Shown here piece by piece: positions 9,948 to 17,499 of a stretch of 64,000 nucleotides of DNA. The stretch is taken from contig NZ_CP116413.1 in NCBI RefSeq assembly GCF_030064675.1, positions 9,019,501 to 9,083,500 of the forward strand. Reading direction: 5' to 3'. Position 1 is the first letter of the stretch. Each line of letters begins with the position of its first letter. The stretch comes from Crossiella sp. CA-258035 (GTDB lineage Bacteria; Actinomycetota; Actinomycetes; Mycobacteriales; Pseudonocardiaceae). Made by a program: the position numbers and the translations under genes. The notes under the pieces are model-generated. The model ran no database searches. It was given only the letters and a program-made list of their open reading frames with translations, and was not told the DNA's origin.

Positions 9948-10714
<767 letters not shown>

Positions 10715-10715
<1 letters not shown>

Positions 10716-11524
10716 CACTGACCTCCCTTCGCGGTGGCGTTCGCCTTGCGCTCCAGCCGCTGCTGCAGGATCGACAGCGGGATGGTGATGATCAGGTAGC
10801 ACAGGCCTGCGACCACGAACGGCGTCATGCTCTTGTACTGGCTCAGCGCCTGGCGGCCGAACTGGGCCAGCTCCTGCTGCTCCAGCGTGGAGCCGATGAA
10901 GAACACCAGCGAGGAGTCCTTGACCAGCATGATCAGCTCGTTGGTCAGCGGCGGCAGGATGATCCGGAAGGCCTGCGGGATGACCACGGTGACCAGCGTG
11001 CGGGTCGGCGACATGCCCAGCGAGCGAGCCGCCTCCACCTGCCCCTTGGGCACCGCCTTGATACCGGCGCGGATGGTCTCGGCCATGTAGGCCGAGGCCA
11101 CGATGCCCAGCGCCAGCGTGATGATCAGCATGCGGTCGACGTTCATCCCGAACGCGGTGGGGATGCCGAAGCCGACCGCGAGGAAGACCAGCAGCGCGGG
11201 CAGGCCCCGGAAGAACTCGATGTAGAGGGTGGCGATCCAGCGGTACGGGCCGACCGAGGACAGCCGCATCAGCGCGAGGATGACACCCACGACGATGCCG
11301 AAGGCGAAGCCCAGCGCGGTGTAGACGATGGTGTTCTTCAGCGCGATGACGATGATGTTCGGGAACAGCTGCCCCGCGACCTCGAAGTCGAAGAACGAGG
11401 TGACGATCTTCTCCCAGTTGGCGAGGAAGGCCATCACCACGAGCACGACGACGAGCAGGCCGTACTGGATGCCCCGGAACAACCGGGCGCGCTGTCTCCG
11501 GCTGAGGCCGGTCTTTCCTGACAT
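10715..11524 (-). CDS. Polar amino-acid ABC transporter permease
   Basis: This 269-residue membrane subunit starts with [16 protein letters not shown] and has about five to six transmembrane segments. The EAA-type cytoplasmic loop is clear ([19 protein letters not shown]). This is the HisM/GlnP family. A longer frame to 11569 crosses a hairpin and is rejected in favour of the ATG at 11524. It is second in the operon lipoprotein-permease-ATPase, separated from the lipoprotein gene by a hairpin that may reduce downstream expression. Confidence 0.92.
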
Positions 11525-11548
11525 ACACAAGCTCCTGGCAAACAGACA

Positions 11549-11575
11549 GGGCCGGTGCGGATCTCGCACCGGCCC
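11549..11575. terminator. Intercistronic attenuating hairpin
   Basis: GGGCCGGTGCG and CGCACCGGCCC pair perfectly (11 bp) around a 5-nt loop, 12 bp after the lipoprotein gene stop and 24 bp before the permease start. Such hairpins between a binding-protein gene and its membrane subunits usually allow partial readthrough and give excess binding protein. Confidence 0.7.
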
Positions 11576-11587
11576 CGGACGGTCGGA

Positions 11588-12394
11588 TCAGCCCTGCTTC
11601 GGCTTCTCCTTGAACCACTTCTCGTAGAGGTTCGCGTAGGTGCCGTCGCTCTTGGCCTTGGCCAGCACCTCGTTGACCTTCTTCAGCAGCACGTCGTTGC
11701 CCTTGCGGACGCCGATGCCGTAGTTCTCGTTGGTGTTGAACGCCGCGGTCATCTCGGTGTCCGGGTTCTTGCGGGCGTAGTCCTTGAGCACGAAGTCGTC
11801 GTTGATGCCCGCGGCGACCGAACCGTTCTTCACCGACTCCAGCAGCAGGCCGAGGTCCTCGAAGGTCACCAGCTCCACACCGGCGGGCGCGGCGTTCTTC
11901 TCCGCGTAGACCTTGCCGGTGGTGTCGGCCTGCACGCCCATCTTCTTGCCCTTGAGCGACTCCAGGCTGGTGATGCCGGAGCCCTTCTTGACCAGCAGCG
12001 CCTGGGTGGCCAGGAAGTACGGGTCGGAGAAGTCGAAGTTCTGCTTGCGGGTGTCCGTGATGGTCATGCCGGCCGCGGCCACGTCGCACTTGTTGATGTT
12101 GAGGTCCTGGCCGGAGGCGATCGTGTCGAACGGGCCGTCCACGATCTCCTGGGTGACGCCCAGGTCCTTGGCGACCAGGTTCACCAGGTCGACGTCGAAG
12201 CCGACGACCTCGTTGCCCTGCTTGAACTGGAACGGCTCGTACGGCAGGTGCGTGCAGGTCTTGATCTTCCCTGCCTCGACCAGCGGCACACCGTTGGCCG
12301 TGGCGCCGCCACCGCCGCCACACGCGGTCGCGGCGAGCAGCAGGGCTGCCACCGGCAGCAGGGCGAGCACCTGGTGTCTGGGTCGACGGGCCAC
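11588..12394 (-). CDS. Amino-acid ABC transporter substrate-binding lipoprotein
   Basis: This 268-residue periplasmic-binding-protein-like lipoprotein has a positively charged start (ARRPRHQ), a hydrophobic stretch and a lipobox ending in ATAC followed by GGGGG. The mature part matches family 3 binding proteins ([20 protein letters not shown], then [13 protein letters not shown] and LYEKWFKEK near the end). The GTG at 12394 follows GAGGAG with proper spacing. Longer frames begin within non-conserved sequence. It delivers a polar amino acid to the downstream permease and ATPase. The ligand is not identified. Confidence 0.92.
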
Positions 12395-12696
12395 GGTGTC
12401 ACTCCTCGTAGTCAGTTTCCGGGCAAGTTCTGCGCATCCTGCCATCCGGATGGCCGGTAGCACAGCAGGTGGCTGGTTACGGGTCCATGACTATGCGGGC
12501 TGCGCTACCTGGGCTAACGACGTTGCGGCTCACCGGCTGAGCACTCCGCCAAGCGGGTATTCCTATTCCCCGAATATCCTGTTCGCGATTTCGAAAGGGC
12601 TGCCCAAACGTGCATTGACCCAGGGAACTTCGCGCTGCTACAAAAATTCTCCGCCGATATCTCGAGCAGCTCCCATCGAAAGGGCCGCATCCCGCC
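12395..12696. other. 302-bp divergent intergenic region
   Basis: No gene was found here. The stretch is visibly poorer in G+C than its surroundings, especially 12540-12680, and must hold promoters for the ABC transporter (leftward) and the polyamine-like cluster (rightward). One promoter candidate for the rightward cluster is listed separately. No riboswitch-like structure was recognised. Confidence 0.6.
12615..12644 (+). promoter_or_regulatory. Candidate sigma-70-type promoter of the cluster
   Basis: TTGACC (12615-12620) and TACAAA (12639-12644) are separated by 18 bp, close to the vegetative consensus. This would place transcription start about 45 bp before the ATG at 12697. Read by eye only. 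Confidence 0.45.
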
Positions 12697-13860
12697 ATGG
12701 ACGAGAGATCGATCTCTGCTGCCGTCAGCCAGTACGGCACCCCCTGCTACCTCTACGACGAGTCCCTGATCCGGCGCAATGCCGAGCGGTTCACCGGACT
12801 GTCCTATCCGGACAAGGCCGTGCATTTCGCCTCGATGGCGAACAACAACCCCGAGCTGCTCAAGCTGCTGCGCGGTCTCGGCATGGGGATCTTCGTGAAC
12901 TCGGCGCGGCACCTCAAGCTCGCCATGGCGTGCGGCTTCGCACCCTCGGAGATCATCTACACCTCGACCGGGGTGCGCAGGTCCGATCTGGAGCTGATCG
13001 CGCGGCTGGGAGTCGCGGTCAACCTGGACTCACTTGGCCAGCTGGAGCTCTACGGCTCGGTCGCGCCCGGCACCAGCTGCGGCATCCGGCTCAACATCGA
13101 CGAGAACTCCCTGGGCAACGTCTTCATCGGCGCGGAGAGCCGGATCGGGCTGCTGGAGAACGAGCTGGAGGTGGCCGCCAAGATCGCGGACAAGTACCGG
13201 CTCACCATCACCGGCACGCACGTCTACCTCGGCACCAACATCGTCTCCCTGGACACGATGATGCAGGGCGTGGCGCGCACCCTGGAACTGTCCGACTTCT
13301 TCCCCGAACTGACCTACGTGGATCTCGGCGGCGGTTTCCCGGTGACCGAGGACGGAATGGAGGAGTTCGACTACGGCAAATACGACGACGCGATCAGCCG
13401 GATGTTCACGGACTATTCACAGAAGCGATGTCGGCCGATCAAACTGATCCTGGAGCCGGGCCGGGCGCTTTTCGGCGACACCGCGGTGTTCTGCACCAGC
13501 GTGCTGGACGTGAAGAACCGGCCGGACCGGGCCCTGGTCTGCGTGGACTCCAGCGCCACCCTGATCCCGCGCTCGCTGTTCTACGGTGAGTACCACGAGG
13601 TGAGCGTGCTGGGCCGTTCGGGCGAGTCGCCCGCGGACCGCCCGGCCGACGTGGTGGGCTCGACCACCTACTCCCGCGACTTCCTGGCCAAGGGCGCCCC
13701 GCTGCCACCGTTGCGCACCGGGGACGTGCTGGTCTTCGACACCGCGGGCAGCTACTGCTACTCGATGATCACCCAGTTCCTCGGCCAGGACGAGCCGAGC
13801 GAGGTGCTGGTGCACCCGGACGGCTCGCACACCCTGATCCGGGACCCGCACCGTGACTGA
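12697..13860 (+). CDS. Decarboxylase-like fold-type III PLP protein lacking catalytic lysine
   Basis: This 387-residue relative of diaminopimelate and ornithine decarboxylases keeps many fold-type III PLP motifs: the barrel histidine in GTHVYLGT (His175), the phosphate-binding GGG (211-213), LEPGR (252-256) and the C-terminal AGSY (350-353). The lysine that forms the PLP Schiff base, expected in a YAxKAN context, is replaced by Met47 (HFASMANN; codon ATG). The catalytic Cys of the usual CESGD motif is also changed (GSTTYSRD, 321-328, with Thr at the Cys position). It is therefore either a pseudoenzyme, a binding or partner subunit, or an enzyme with altered chemistry. Its stop overlaps the next gene by eight bases. 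Confidence 0.8.
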   Translation: MDERSISAAVSQYGTPCYLYDESLIRRNAERFTGLSYPDKAVHFASMANNNPELLKLLRGLGMGIFVNSARHLKLAMACGFAPSEIIYTSTGVRRSDLELIARLGVAVNLDSLGQLELYGSVAPGTSCGIRLNIDENSLGNVFIGAESRIGLLENELEVAAKIADKYRLTITGTHVYLGTNIVSLDTMMQGVARTLELSDFFPELTYVDLGGGFPVTEDGMEEFDYGKYDDAISRMFTDYSQKRCRPIKLILEPGRALFGDTAVFCTSVLDVKNRPDRALVCVDSSATLIPRSLFYGEYHEVSVLGRSGESPADRPADVVGSTTYSRDFLAKGAPLPPLRTGDVLVFDTAGSYCYSMITQFLGQDEPSEVLVHPDGSHTLIRDPHRD

Positions 13861-14770
13861 ACGCTGGACGGTCGAGGAGATCGCCCCTGGTGAGCGGCAC
13901 TGCCACCGGGTGGTGGAAGAGGTCGTGGTCGTGGACAGCGAGTTCCAGCGGATCGAGGTGCTGGAGACGCAGGGCTACGGCCGGGGCCTGTTCCTGGACG
14001 GGCGGATCCAGCACGTGGCCGCGGACGAGTACATCTACAGCGAGGCCATGGTGCACCCGGCCATGCAGCTGCTGGACGGGCGCGCGGCCAGGGTGCTGTG
14101 CGTGGGCGCCGGTCCGGGCGGGATCGTGCGCGAGCTGCTGCGCTATCCCGGCGTGCGCGAGGTGGTGCAGGTGGAGATCGACACCACCGTGGTGGACATC
14201 GCCAGCAGGCACCTGCCCTCGGTGGGCGCGGACTTCCGGCTGGACCCGCGCTACCGGCTGGTGGTGGCCGACGCGCTGGACTACCTGGCCACCGAGCGCG
14301 AGCCGTTCGACCTGATCGTCAACGACCTCAGCGAACCGCTGCCCGGCAGCCCGGCGGGCAGGCTGTTCGCCGCCGAGGCGGTGCGGCTGGTTCGGCAGCG
14401 GCTGACCGGGCGCGGGCTGTACGTGTCCTGGTGCGGCTCGGTCGGCCCGGTGTCGGCGGAGTTCGCGGCGCGGATCTTCCACGTCATCGGGGAGGTGTTC
14501 GGGCAGGCGCACGGCTACCTCAGCTACCCGCAGTCCTACGGCACGGTCTGGCTGACCGGCATCGGCGCGCGGTCGCCGCTGGACCCGCTGGCGCACAGCC
14601 CGGCCGAGCTGGACCAGCGGCTGGCCCGCACCTGCGCCGGGGAGCTGCGGCTCTACGACGGGCAGACCCACCACCACATGTTCCTGCTGCCCAAGAACGT
14701 CCGGGCCGCGCTCAGCGCCCCGGTCGCGGATCCGGCCGCCCCCATCGAGCTGCTTGTGGAGAGGCTGTGA
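13853..14770 (+). CDS. Spermidine synthase-like aminopropyltransferase (copy 1)
   Basis: This 305-residue protein has the SpeE arrangement: an N-terminal beta-strand region with YGRGLFLDGRIQ (42-53) and DEYIYSE, then a Rossmann-like domain with GAGPGG (85-90), an acidic VEID strand and the gate motif NDLSEP (157-162). The first catalytic aspartate of the canonical DxxD is kept (Asp158) and the second is Glu161. Family members transfer an aminopropyl group from decarboxylated SAM, or related groups, to an amine. The GTG start lies inside the end of the preceding gene. The 3' end overlaps the methyltransferase gene by GTGA. The substrate is unknown. Confidence 0.82.
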   Translation: MTERWTVEEIAPGERHCHRVVEEVVVVDSEFQRIEVLETQGYGRGLFLDGRIQHVAADEYIYSEAMVHPAMQLLDGRAARVLCVGAGPGGIVRELLRYPGVREVVQVEIDTTVVDIASRHLPSVGADFRLDPRYRLVVADALDYLATEREPFDLIVNDLSEPLPGSPAGRLFAAEAVRLVRQRLTGRGLYVSWCGSVGPVSAEFAARIFHVIGEVFGQAHGYLSYPQSYGTVWLTGIGARSPLDPLAHSPAELDQRLARTCAGELRLYDGQTHHHMFLLPKNVRAALSAPVADPAAPIELLVERL

Positions 14771-15588
14771 CAAGAGCGGCGCCGGAGGACTTCGCGCTGG
14801 TCGCGGAGCTGTACGACCAGGACATGGCCGGCAACAACCTGGTGCACGACCTGGTCTACCCCAGGGTGTACGGGCCCGGTGAGTACATCGGGCAGTTCAG
14901 CGACAACAGCGCCGCCGAGCTGCGCGCGCTGGCCGCGGCGATGGACCTGCCGCCGGAGTCGGCGGTGCTGGACATCGGCTGCGGCACCGCGCCGGTGGCC
15001 GCGTTCCTGGCCACCGAGCTGGGCTGGCGGATCACCGGCATCGACGTGGCGGCCAGCCCGCTGCGCAAGGCGGCCGAGCGGCTGGCCGAACACGGCCTGA
15101 CCGAGCGGGTCGGCCTGGCGCACGGGGATGTGTACCGGCACGCCTTCGACCGGCCCTTCGACGGGATCTACGGCACCGGCGCGTTCTGCCACTTCGACCC
15201 GGTCCGGCTGTTCGCCCGCTGCCACGAGCTGCTGCGGCCCGGCGGGCGGCTGGCGTTCATGGAGCGGGTGCGCACCGGCGAGCTGACCGAGCGGGAGTGG
15301 CGGCAGCTGACCGTGGAATGGGCCTGTCCCACGGTGAACACGGTCGCGGAGTACCGGTCCGCGCTGGCCGGGGCCGGGTTCGAGGTGGACCTGGTGCGCG
15401 ACCTGACGCCGACCTTCCGGGACTGGCAGGACCGGTCGGTGGTGGTCCGGCACGAGCTCAAGGCGGAGATCATCGCGCTGACCTCGGCGGAGTACTTCGA
15501 GACCAGCGTGCGGCTGGCCGACTACGAGAACGCGGTGACCAAGGCAGGCAAGCTGGGCTACGCCCTGATCACCGCGACGGCCCGATGA
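14767..15588 (+). CDS. Class I SAM-dependent methyltransferase
   Basis: This 273-residue methyltransferase has motif I LDIGCGT (68-74), an acidic GIDVAASPL motif II and a LRPGGRLAFME post-motif strand. The extended N-terminal segment (LYDQDMAGNNLVHDLVYP...YIGQFSDNS) resembles small-molecule N- or C-methyltransferases of the sarcosine/dimethylglycine type rather than rRNA or DNA enzymes. It is coupled at both ends (GTGA with the upstream gene, ATGA with the downstream gene), so it is made together with the two aminopropyltransferase-like proteins and probably methylates their product. That step is inference. Confidence 0.85.
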   Translation: MTRAAPEDFALVAELYDQDMAGNNLVHDLVYPRVYGPGEYIGQFSDNSAAELRALAAAMDLPPESAVLDIGCGTAPVAAFLATELGWRITGIDVAASPLRKAAERLAEHGLTERVGLAHGDVYRHAFDRPFDGIYGTGAFCHFDPVRLFARCHELLRPGGRLAFMERVRTGELTEREWRQLTVEWACPTVNTVAEYRSALAGAGFEVDLVRDLTPTFRDWQDRSVVVRHELKAEIIALTSAEYFETSVRLADYENAVTKAGKLGYALITATAR

Positions 15589-16499
15589 AACCGTTGTGGG
15601 ACAACCAGATCGAGGAGTACATCACTCCTGACGAGTGCCATGTGCACGCGGTGCGCTCGGTCCTGGCGACCGGGCGCACCGCCCGGCAGGGCTTCCAGAT
15701 CGTGACGCTGGGCGGCTACGGCCGGGCGATGGTGATCGAGGGCAGGGTGCAGTCCACCGAGGCGGACGAGGCGGCCTACCACGAGGCGCTGCTGCTGCCC
15801 GCCTACTGCCTGCTGCCGCACACCCGCCGGGTGCTCTGCCTCGGCGGGGCCAACGGCGGCGTGCTGCACCGGCTGTGCGCGATGCCGGAGCTGGAAACCG
15901 TGGTGCAACTGGACATCGACCCCGAGCTGCACCGGCACTCCCTCGAACACCTGCCGCACCTGCACCACGACGGACCGGCGGATCCGCGCTGCCACTTGGC
16001 CTTCGGCGATCCGCGCACCCTGCTGGCGGACCAGGACCACGACTTCGACCTGGTGCTGGCCGACCTGCCGGACGCGGTCGAGGACTCGCCGACGCCGGGC
16101 CTGTTCACCCAGGAGTTCTACCGCGAGGTCAAGGGAAAGCTGGCCGGAAACGGGGTGTTCGCCACCCAGGCCGGACCGGCGAACTTCCTGGACCCGGAGT
16201 TCTTCGCCAGCGTGCTGCGCACCCTGCGCTCGGTGTTCCGGCACGTGCTGCCCTACACGCTCACCGTGCCCTCCTACGGCATCCCGTGGGGGTTCGCGCT
16301 GGCCAGCGACGACCTGGACCCGGCCGCGCTGACCGAGGCAGTCGTCGAGCAGCGGCTGGCGCGGTTGGCCACCGCGCCGCAGTGCTACGACGGCGGCACC
16401 CACCGGCACATGACCGCGCTGCCGCTGCGGCTGCGCACCGCGCTGGCCACGGCCGGACGGGTGATCAGTGATGCGGACACCCTGGCCGTCCGTGTTTGA
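15585..16499 (+). CDS. Spermidine synthase-like aminopropyltransferase (copy 2)
   Basis: This second SpeE-like protein (304 residues) is only distantly similar to copy 1. It shows GYGRAMVIEGRVQSTEADE (44-62), a nucleotide-binding GGANGG (87-92), an acidic QLDIDPE strand and both catalytic-type aspartates in ADLPD (159-163). Because copy 1 has D..E and copy 2 D..D, the two may use different donors or acceptors, or form a heteromer. The ATG overlaps the methyltransferase stop. It ends 30 bp before the exporter gene, with no terminator between them. Confidence 0.82.
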   Translation: MKPLWDNQIEEYITPDECHVHAVRSVLATGRTARQGFQIVTLGGYGRAMVIEGRVQSTEADEAAYHEALLLPAYCLLPHTRRVLCLGGANGGVLHRLCAMPELETVVQLDIDPELHRHSLEHLPHLHHDGPADPRCHLAFGDPRTLLADQDHDFDLVLADLPDAVEDSPTPGLFTQEFYREVKGKLAGNGVFATQAGPANFLDPEFFASVLRTLRSVFRHVLPYTLTVPSYGIPWGFALASDDLDPAALTEAVVEQRLARLATAPQCYDGGTHRHMTALPLRLRTALATAGRVISDADTLAVRV

Positions 16500-16529
16500 T
16501 CGGCGGCGCAACGGAAACAGGGGGAGCAG

Positions 16530-17480
16530 ATGAGTGAGCGAACCGCCGTGCGCGGCAGCAGCCTGTCCGGGATCGGCCTGGGCATCGGCGCGAACCTGAT
16601 CTGGGGACTGGCCTTCCTGGTGCCGGTGCTGCTGCCCGAGTTCTCCCCGGTGGCGGTCACCCTCGGCCGCTACGTCTGTTACGGCCTGCTCTCCGTCGCG
16701 CTGATCGTCTTCACCGGCACCAGGCTGCGCGGGCACTCCTGGCCGGTGTGGCGGTCCTGCCTGCTCTTCGCCGTGACCGGCAACGTCGGCTACTACTTCT
16801 TGCTGGTCCAGGGCATCGCGCTGGTCGGGGCCCCGGTGGTGGCGGTGGTCATCGGCACCCTGCCGGTGACCGTGGCCGTCTACGGCAACCTGCGCCGCCG
16901 CGAGTTCCCGTTCTCCCGGCTCGCGCTGCCGGTCGGGGTGATCCTGATCGGGCTGGTCGCGGTGAACGTCAGCGAGATCGACTTCTCCGGACTGGGCGGC
17001 CGTTCACTGGGCGAACAGCTGCTCGGCCTGGGCTGCGCGGTGCTGGCGCTGGCCATGTGGACCTGGTTCGGCGTGGCCAACGCCCAGTTCCTGCGCACAC
17101 ATCCCCAGATCAGCTCGGCGGACTGGTCCACCCTCATCGGCGTGGCCACGCTGGGCCTGTCCGTGCTGGCCGCGCCGCTGCTGCTGGTCACCGGGGACGC
17201 CGTGGGCCGCGGCATCGGCGCGGACTCGCTGTGGTTCCTGCTGCTGGGCAGCCTGGTGCTCGGCGTGCTGGTCAGCTGGGGCGGCACCCTGCTGTGGAAC
17301 CAGGCATCGGGCAGGCTGCCGGTGTCGGTGGCGGGCCAGCTGATCGTGTTCGAGACCATCTCCGGCCTGGTCTACGTGTTCCTGGCCAGCGGCAAGACCC
17401 CGCCGCTGCTCGGCGTGGCCGGGATGGCCGTGGTGCTGACCGGGGTGGTGATCGGCATCCGGCAGGCCCGGACCGCCTGA
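16530..17480 (+). CDS. EamA/DMT family transporter
   Basis: This 316-residue integral membrane protein has about ten transmembrane segments and two EamA repeats, the fold of drug/metabolite exporters. Typical motifs are ANLIWGLAFLVPVLL near the N-terminus and LLWNQASGRLPVSVAGQLI in the second repeat. The start ATG follows a strong GGGGGAG. It is the fifth gene of the aminopropyltransferase cluster and is the obvious candidate to export the product or take up its precursor. The direction and substrate are inferred from context. Confidence 0.88.
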   Translation: MSERTAVRGSSLSGIGLGIGANLIWGLAFLVPVLLPEFSPVAVTLGRYVCYGLLSVALIVFTGTRLRGHSWPVWRSCLLFAVTGNVGYYFLLVQGIALVGAPVVAVVIGTLPVTVAVYGNLRRREFPFSRLALPVGVILIGLVAVNVSEIDFSGLGGRSLGEQLLGLGCAVLALAMWTWFGVANAQFLRTHPQISSADWSTLIGVATLGLSVLAAPLLLVTGDAVGRGIGADSLWFLLLGSLVLGVLVSWGGTLLWNQASGRLPVSVAGQLIVFETISGLVYVFLASGKTPPLLGVAGMAVVLTGVVIGIRQARTA

Positions 17481-17499
17481 GCGATCCGGGCCTGACAAC

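What the first reader, a model, noticed from the sequence alone, without database searches (positions are those of the whole stretch)
12697..17480. Coupled five-gene cluster of polyamine-type enzymes with no recognised pathway
Four genes overlap stop-to-start (a PLP decarboxylase-like protein, a spermidine synthase-like protein, a methyltransferase and a second spermidine synthase-like protein), and an EamA exporter follows 30 bp later. The combination of two distinct aminopropyltransferase-like proteins, a small-molecule methyltransferase and an exporter suggests a modified polyamine, metallophore-like or similar secreted compound. Known spermidine operons use SpeD, SpeE and one decarboxylase and do not contain this set.
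Basis: partly seen in the sequence, partly recalled or inferred. Interest (0 to 1): 0.8.

Follow-up and report, generated by a model that had tools for sequence, protein, structure and literature searches.

The report
Rare five-gene small-molecule export cassette
A rare set of five linked genes, shared by a few distantly related soil bacteria, looks built to make and export an unknown small amine, using relatives of spermidine-making enzymes whose key active-site residues have been replaced.

Summary
In detail: five genes lie at 12697-17480, the first four with 8, 4 and 4 bp overlaps and the fifth 30 bp later. The same five genes in the same order occur in three Crossiella genomes, Streptoalloteichus, Saccharothrix and Streptosporangium, with different flanks outside Crossiella. 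One Crossiella genome has a clean empty site (flanks abut at 12495|17483) and a same-species genome keeps only an eroded remnant, so the five genes behave as one unit.

The 'decarboxylase' (g1) lacks the PLP-binding lysine (Met in 7 of 7 g1 sequences, Lys in 33 of 33 aligned LysA-type homologs) and the catalytic Cys-Glu, yet keeps the rest of the PLP pocket under purifying selection; it is unlikely to be an ordinary decarboxylase. Both SpeE-like proteins lost the acidic residue that holds decarboxylated SAM, and g2 also has His and Ser at two further positions that differ in plant putrescine N-methyltransferase. Streptosporangium saharense has the cassette but no SpeD-family match. Best reading: g2 (methyl) and g4 (methyl or aminocarboxypropyl) transfer groups from SAM itself onto an amine, g3 methylates, g1 does lysine-free chemistry, g5 exports. 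The product is unknown.

The parts
12495..17483 (.). extent of the cassette, defined by the empty site in same-genus genome G016 (flanks abut at these two points)
12697..13860 (+). g1: LysA-fold protein lacking the PLP Schiff-base lysine
12835..12837 (+). codon for Met47 of g1, at the position of the PLP-binding lysine (VHFASMANNNP)
13666..13671 (+). codons for Thr324-Tyr325 of g1, replacing the Cys-Glu of LysA-type enzymes
13853..14770 (+). g2: SpeE-fold protein with motifs GAGPGG, IQH and YSE; predicted SAM-using N-methyltransferase
14012..14014 (+). His54 codon of g2 (position 70 of Datura SPDS1; His in plant PMT)
14039..14041 (+). Ser63 codon of g2 (position 79; Thr in plant PMT)
14114..14116 (+). 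Pro88 codon of g2 (position 103; Ile in plant PMT, Asp/Glu in nearly all SpeE homologs examined)
14767..15588 (+). g3: class I SAM-dependent methyltransferase
15585..16499 (+). g4: second SpeE-fold protein with motif GGANGG
15852..15854 (+). Asn90 codon of g4 in place of the Asp/Glu that holds decarboxylated SAM
16530..17480 (+). g5: EamA (DMT) family transporter, presumed exporter of the product

Best explanation
A self-contained, rarely held five-gene biosynthetic cassette that makes and exports a small amine-derived metabolite. Shown: gene set, order, unit-like presence and absence, and active-site replacements. Inferred: (1) g2 and g4 use S-adenosylmethionine itself, not decarboxylated SAM; g2 is most likely an amine N-methyltransferase on a spermidine-synthase scaffold, reached independently of plant putrescine N-methyltransferase; g4 transfers either methyl or 3-amino-3-carboxypropyl. 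(2) g3 adds a further methyl group. (3) g1 is not a decarboxylase; it most likely still binds PLP, PMP or a similar phosphate ligand and a carboxylate substrate without a Schiff-base lysine and does a different reaction. (4) g5 exports the product. Step likelihoods: one functional unit 0.97; g1 not an ordinary decarboxylase 0.93; g2 on SAM 0.75 (methyl rather than aminocarboxypropyl 0.65 given that); g4 on SAM 0.6; g5 exports the product 0.7.
For: Order and content conserved in 4 genera. The ABC-transporter binding protein and permease and the M20 gene that flank it in Crossiella have no match beside it elsewhere, and no other gene is shared between the flanks of the four genera except ABC-ATPase-type matches and their shadow frames, 28-46 percent identity. 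Empty and eroded sites. g1: Met at the Lys position in exactly 5 of the 80 loci kept by the genome scan, Lys in 75, and in 7 of 7 g1 rows against Lys in 33 of 33 LysA-type rows of the final alignment; also D88 to F, E94 to H, H197 to Y, C360 to T, E361 to Y, while R154, GGG, E274, R277, R292 and Y389 equivalents stay. dN/dS of g1 is 0.09-0.13 within Crossiella, the lowest of the five genes in two of three pairs and level with g5 in the third. g2/g4: acid of motif I replaced in 12 of 12, kept in 54 of 56 other homologs; His at position 70 in 6 of 6 g2 and 0 of 56 others. In Datura SPDS, D103I left no detectable activity with decarboxylated SAM and started methyl transfer from SAM; Q79T and V106T raised it (PMC3725402, passages). 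S. saharense has g2 and g4 as its only PF01564 matches and no PF02675 (SpeD) match; 15 of 16 genomes of its genus, itself included, lack one. In the window's genome SpeD sits beside another SpeE-like gene, far from the cassette, whose motif I keeps an acid.
Against: g2 lacks the V106T exchange of plant PMT (Ile, Ala or Val); L70H lowered methyl transfer in the mutant plant enzymes, and the mutated Arabidopsis enzyme kept residual spermidine synthase activity, so loss of the acid does not by itself exclude decarboxylated SAM. g4 has only the Asp to Asn change. Six of seven genomes tested do have SpeD. Between genera g1 is not the most constrained gene (g3 or g5 is lower in some pairs). No substrate or product is known. 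PF02675 would miss an unrelated SAM decarboxylase. PLP binding by g1 is inferred from residues only.
Confidence: 0.55

Rival explanations
1. The product is a nicotianamine-like metallophore: g2 and g4 are aminocarboxypropyl transferases that add SAM-derived units to an amino acid, g3 methylates, and g5 exports the chelator as CntI exports pseudopaline.
For: The EamA-type protein CntI exports pseudopaline in P. aeruginosa (PMC5719457, passages); Asp to Asn in g4 would remove the repulsion of the SAM carboxylate that PMC3725402 cites as assumed for D103; aminocarboxypropyl transfer to small molecules is known from NAS, CntL and MccD (PMC10491745, passages).
Against: No IdeR/DmdR1 or Zur box upstream of g1 in six genomes stands clearly above simple shuffles (12 tests; the best, IdeR in Saccharothrix, was reached by 8 of 200 shuffles); no gene beyond the five is shared by the flanks of the four genera except ABC-ATPase-type matches; none of the five is a NAS/CntL or opine-dehydrogenase family by Pfam.
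Confidence: 0.22
2. Ordinary polyamine modification as first read: a decarboxylase makes a diamine, two aminopropyltransferases extend it with decarboxylated SAM, a methyltransferase caps it.
For: Folds and Pfam families; catalytic Asp of SpeE kept in 12 of 12; all six other genomes tested, Angelobacter included, have SpeD.
Against: g1 lacks Lys and Cys-Glu; acid of motif I lost in both SpeE-like proteins; no SpeD-family match in S. saharense.
Confidence: 0.12
3. g1 is a non-catalytic partner (pseudoenzyme) that stabilises or feeds the other enzymes, comparable in logic to antizyme inhibitor (recalled), and the chemistry is all done by g2-g4.
For: The lysine and several residues around it changed together.
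Against: The PLP-phosphate, pyridine and carboxylate contacts are all kept (roles recalled) and g1 is under strong purifying selection within Crossiella, which a scaffold would not obviously need.
Confidence: 0.25
4. Decaying or chance cluster without a function.
For: The same-species genome G086 keeps only a remnant of about 0.7 kb and G016 has none; dN/dS of g2 and g4 in the two Crossiella pairs with the window is 0.41-0.51.
Against: Open frames in six genomes, dN/dS below 1 in all 30 pair comparisons made, and order kept across four genera.
Confidence: 0.03

Closest known systems
SpeD-SpeE spermidine pathway (polyamine aminopropyltransferase, NF002010/TIGR00417)
   Same: SpeE fold (g2 model best PDB match thermospermine synthase 6bq2), catalytic Asp, ribose-binding acid
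   Different: acid that holds decarboxylated SAM replaced; scores below equivalog cut-offs; no SpeD match in one host; two SpeE-like lineages with a methyltransferase and transporter
Plant putrescine N-methyltransferase (PMT)
   Same: SpeE scaffold; non-acidic residue at 103, small hydroxyl residue at 79 and His at 70 in g2
   Different: Pro instead of Ile at 103, Ser instead of Thr at 79, no Thr at 106; bacterial, independent origin presumed and not tested by a tree with plant sequences; substrate unknown
LysA / fold type III PLP decarboxylases (LysA, BtrK)
   Same: fold and most of the PLP pocket
   Different: no Schiff-base Lys, no Cys-Glu, stacking His replaced by Tyr
Microcin C aminopropylation (MccD plus PLP domain of MccE)
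   Same: logic of a SAM-using alkyl transferase beside a PLP-decarboxylase protein (PMC10491745, passages)
   Different: SpeE-family proteins instead of MccD; g1 lacks the residues for decarboxylation; no peptide or nucleotide genes among the five
Opine metallophore clusters (cnt)
   Same: EamA-type transporter, SAM-using enzymes
   Different: no CntL- or CntM-like family among the five genes; no clear metal box

Membership tests
Fold type III PLP-dependent decarboxylase (LysA/ODC) | Schiff-base lysine in F/Y-A-x-K-A-N | tested here: not met
   Met in 7 of 7 g1 rows, Lys in 33 of 33 LysA-type rows
Fold type III PLP-dependent decarboxylase (LysA/ODC) | active-site Cys-Glu (CE[ST]xD) | tested here: not met
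   Thr-Tyr in 7 of 7 g1 rows, Cys-Glu in 33 of 33 LysA-type rows
Fold type III PLP-dependent decarboxylase (LysA/ODC) | overall fold and phosphate-binding GGG / EPGR / Tyr | tested here: met
   (best match 1ko0, TM 0.90 by query length)
Spermidine synthase (SpeE) | acidic residue in motif I GGG[DE]G | tested here: not met
   P or N in 12 of 12
Spermidine synthase (SpeE) | catalytic Asp of the DxxD/E loop | tested here: met
   first Asp 12 of 12; second Asp in g4, Glu in g2
Spermidine synthase (SpeE) | SpeD in the same genome as donor source | tested here: inconclusive
   present in six of seven genomes, absent from S. saharense
Plant-type putrescine N-methyltransferase | residue set H70, T79, I103, T106 | tested here: inconclusive
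   g2 has H, S, P and I/A/V
Plant-type putrescine N-methyltransferase | methyl transfer from SAM to putrescine | not testable with these tools
   needs an enzyme assay
Opine / nicotianamine-like metallophore | metal-responsive control | tested here: inconclusive
   no IdeR or Zur box clearly above shuffles in six upstream regions; motifs recalled, other regulators not tested
Opine / nicotianamine-like metallophore | NAS/CntL-like and opine dehydrogenase genes | tested here: not met
   none among the five genes by Pfam
Anti-phage defence | match to a defence protein beyond a shared domain | tested here: not met
   only partial matches of g2, g3 and g4 to mad2, read as a shared methyltransferase domain

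The most novel reading that the evidence does not exclude
The cassette encodes a new kind of pathway: a bacterial amine N-methyltransferase that evolved from spermidine synthase independently of plants, a second SpeE-fold enzyme that moves the aminocarboxypropyl group of SAM, and a LysA-fold enzyme that works on PLP or a PLP-like ligand without a Schiff-base lysine, together making an unknown exported metabolite found in Actinomycetota and, in a variant, Acidobacteriota.
Probability: 0.25. Interest if true: 0.8.

Novelty: new variant of a known kind. Interest (0 to 1): 0.6.

Why it matters
It offers a small, clean system (five genes, natural empty site in a sister genome) in which two enzyme families that are usually annotated by name alone have lost residues that define their reactions. 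If g2 methylates amines, it would be a second, bacterial origin of a methyltransferase from spermidine synthase, which tests the plant alkaloid evolution model. A lysine-free LysA-fold enzyme under selection would be new PLP-fold chemistry. It also shows that 'spermidine synthase' and 'diaminopimelate decarboxylase' labels in such clusters can mislead.

Tried and rejected
Larger gene cluster around the cassette: rejected; near neighbours include a TetR regulator, ROK protein, amino-acid ABC transporter, M20 peptidase and SSF symporter, and the flanks persist in G016 without the cassette. Link to the divergent ABC transporter at 9948-12463: rejected as part of the system, since it stays in G016 and its binding protein and permease have no match beside the cassette in the other genera; the comparison of flanks did give ABC-ATPase-type matches (best 33-38 percent) between Crossiella, Saccharothrix and Streptosporangium, which I read as generic. 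Metal-box search: nothing clear. Defence system: rejected. Structure searches gave only the expected folds. More distant carriers: g3 was not found at the cut-offs used in 396 other genomes of the order sample (E 1e-30), 346 other acidobacterial genomes (E 1e-35) or 249 other genomes of the Streptosporangium family (E 1e-45); these are samples. Literature: one search found 0 papers with all five terms; no listed paper held 'spermidine synthase-like' or 'spermidine synthase homolog' (25 and 10 listed of 7,245 and 5,765; papers with more terms come first, so none held all three); one search found 4 papers, none on such a cluster by title; one search listed six, none on a lysine-free LysA by title. 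The library holds open-licence PMC papers only, so this does not show that nothing is in print. Limits: only 80 of 502 g1 relatives of the scan were kept and checked, only 33 of the 75 Lys-type ones went into the alignment, and the scan needed an exact match to one of two short peptides. The SpeE tree used 43 of 68 rows, the rest left out as near-copies or too distant. The 56 non-cluster SpeE rows include many close relatives, so they count sequences, not events; L134 is distant and may be misaligned. An earlier count said 42 of 44 for the motif I acid; the correct count is 54 of 56.
Full report
OBSERVATION. Overlaps are 8, 4 and 4 bp. The window is 9019501-9083500 of a 9.17 Mb genome; its genus is taken to be Crossiella because same-genus genome G108 has the contig length of Crossiella sp. 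S99.2.

A UNIT. A search of 200 genomes of the family with g2 at E 1e-20 or better matched 35; four of them (own, G055, G108, G001) have full-length matches with a second SpeE-like match about 1.7 kb away, the other 31 one partial match of 77-94 bits. All five genes lie in the same order in G055, G108 and G001. The genes that flank it in Crossiella (binding protein, permease, M20) have no match beside it in the other genera. Comparing the flanks of four genera gave nine cross-genus matches, all ABC-ATPase-type or their shadow frames by my reading. Within Crossiella five genomes are held: three have the cassette, G016 has a clean empty site in which the flanks abut at window 12495 and 17483, and the same-species genome G086 has about 0.7 kb with pieces of g1 and g5 only. 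So presence and absence concern the five genes and their promoter region together.

g1 IS PROBABLY NOT A DECARBOXYLASE. Among the 80 loci, the residue at the PLP-binding lysine is Met in five (L026-L030) and Lys in 75. In a 40-row alignment (7 g1 rows and 33 of those 75), all seven g1 rows have Met and all 33 LysA-type rows Lys. Other switches, complete or with one exception among the 33, are Asp to Phe, Glu to His, stacking His to Tyr, Ser to Thr, and Cys-Glu to Thr-Tyr; the Arg, GGG, Glu, Arg, Arg292 and Tyr positions that hold the phosphate, the pyridine nitrogen and the substrate carboxylate are kept in all seven (the roles, in ornithine decarboxylase numbering, are recalled, not from a call). 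AlphaFold gives a confident LysA fold (pLDDT 90.4; best PDB match 1ko0). dN/dS of g1 within Crossiella is 0.09-0.13 against 0.09-0.51 for the other genes; between genera it is 0.33-0.40 and not the lowest. So the change is not decay. I infer that g1 still binds a PLP-like ligand and a carboxylate substrate and does something other than decarboxylation.

g2 AND g4 PROBABLY USE SAM ITSELF. In a tree of 43 SpeE rows each is its own clade (support 100/100 and 100/99), so the two were distinct before the genera that carry them acquired or parted with the cassette. The acidic residue of motif I is Pro in 6 of 6 g2 and Asn in 6 of 6 g4, but Asp or Glu in 54 of 56 other SpeE homologs fetched here. The two exceptions are L134 (distant) and L127 (the Angelobacter protein below). 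PMC3725402 (passages read) reports that D103I in Datura spermidine synthase left no detectable activity with decarboxylated SAM and started methyl transfer from SAM, and that Q79T and V106T raised it; His at position 70 is conserved in plant PMT. g2 has His at 70 (0 of 56 others), Ser at 79 (Ser or Thr in 6 of 56 others) and Pro at 103, but not Thr at 106. The same paper reports results that weaken this: L70H lowered activity in the mutants, and the Arabidopsis enzyme kept residual spermidine synthase activity. Genomic context helps: S. saharense has no PF02675 match at E 0.01 and only g2 and g4 as PF01564 matches, and 15 of 16 genomes of its genus, itself included, lack SpeD, so an assembly gap is unlikely. 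The other six genomes tested have SpeD; in the window's genome it sits beside another SpeE-like gene (3222266 and 3222811) whose motif I is GSSEGV, with an acid. The g2 model is a SpeE fold (pLDDT 90.1).

A DISTANT VARIANT. A Candidatus Angelobacter MAG (Acidobacteriota) has a Met-type g1 at 55 percent identity next to an Amidohydro_2 protein (L030). On another contig of the same genome an apparent operon holds a g3-like methyltransferase (42 percent by tblastn, 41 by alignment), an unassigned GNAT-looking protein (my reading; no Pfam match), a SpeE-like protein with a non-acidic motif I, a CysK-like protein and an AMP-binding enzyme (L183). So g1, g3 and a SpeE-like protein co-occur in a second phylum, but not in one cluster; the link is by shared metagenome-assembled genome only. 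That methyltransferase was in 1 of 347 acidobacterial genomes.

PRODUCT. Unknown. g5 is an EamA protein; CntI, with two predicted EamA domains, exports pseudopaline (PMC5719457, passages), so a metallophore is possible, but no IdeR or Zur box stood clearly above shuffles. N-methylated or aminocarboxypropylated amines are the classes the residues suggest.

VERDICT. I file it as a new variant of a known kind (a small SAM-based metabolite cluster), with a possibly new enzyme reaction in g1.

Noticed in passing
G000:C1:4126215-4126523 (L112), also G055 and G108: A second AdoMet_dc (SpeD-like) gene besides the one that lies beside a SpeE-like gene; such copies can be neofunctionalised ornithine or arginine decarboxylases (PMC10407285, start of abstract in a listing).
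   Followed up: no
L183 6763-11809 (G523:C2): Acidobacterial operon of methyltransferase, GNAT-looking protein, SpeE-like, CysK-like and AMP-binding enzyme, related to the cassette.
   Followed up: partly
L030 3360-9158: Met-type g1 beside an Amidohydro_2 gene, with a divergent MutE fused to a mutase-S-like B12-binding part and an Asp/Glu racemase.
   Followed up: partly
window 12456-12509: 11-nt inverted repeat (91 percent) whose arms lie on either side of the left border of the cassette; possibly a terminator or a scar.
   Followed up: no
G1250-G1264 and G522: SpeD (PF02675) has no match in 15 of 16 genomes of the Streptosporangium genus.
   Followed up: no
window 9948-12463: Divergent amino-acid ABC transporter (SBP_bac_3 protein, permease, ATPase), present also without the cassette in G016.
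   Followed up: partly
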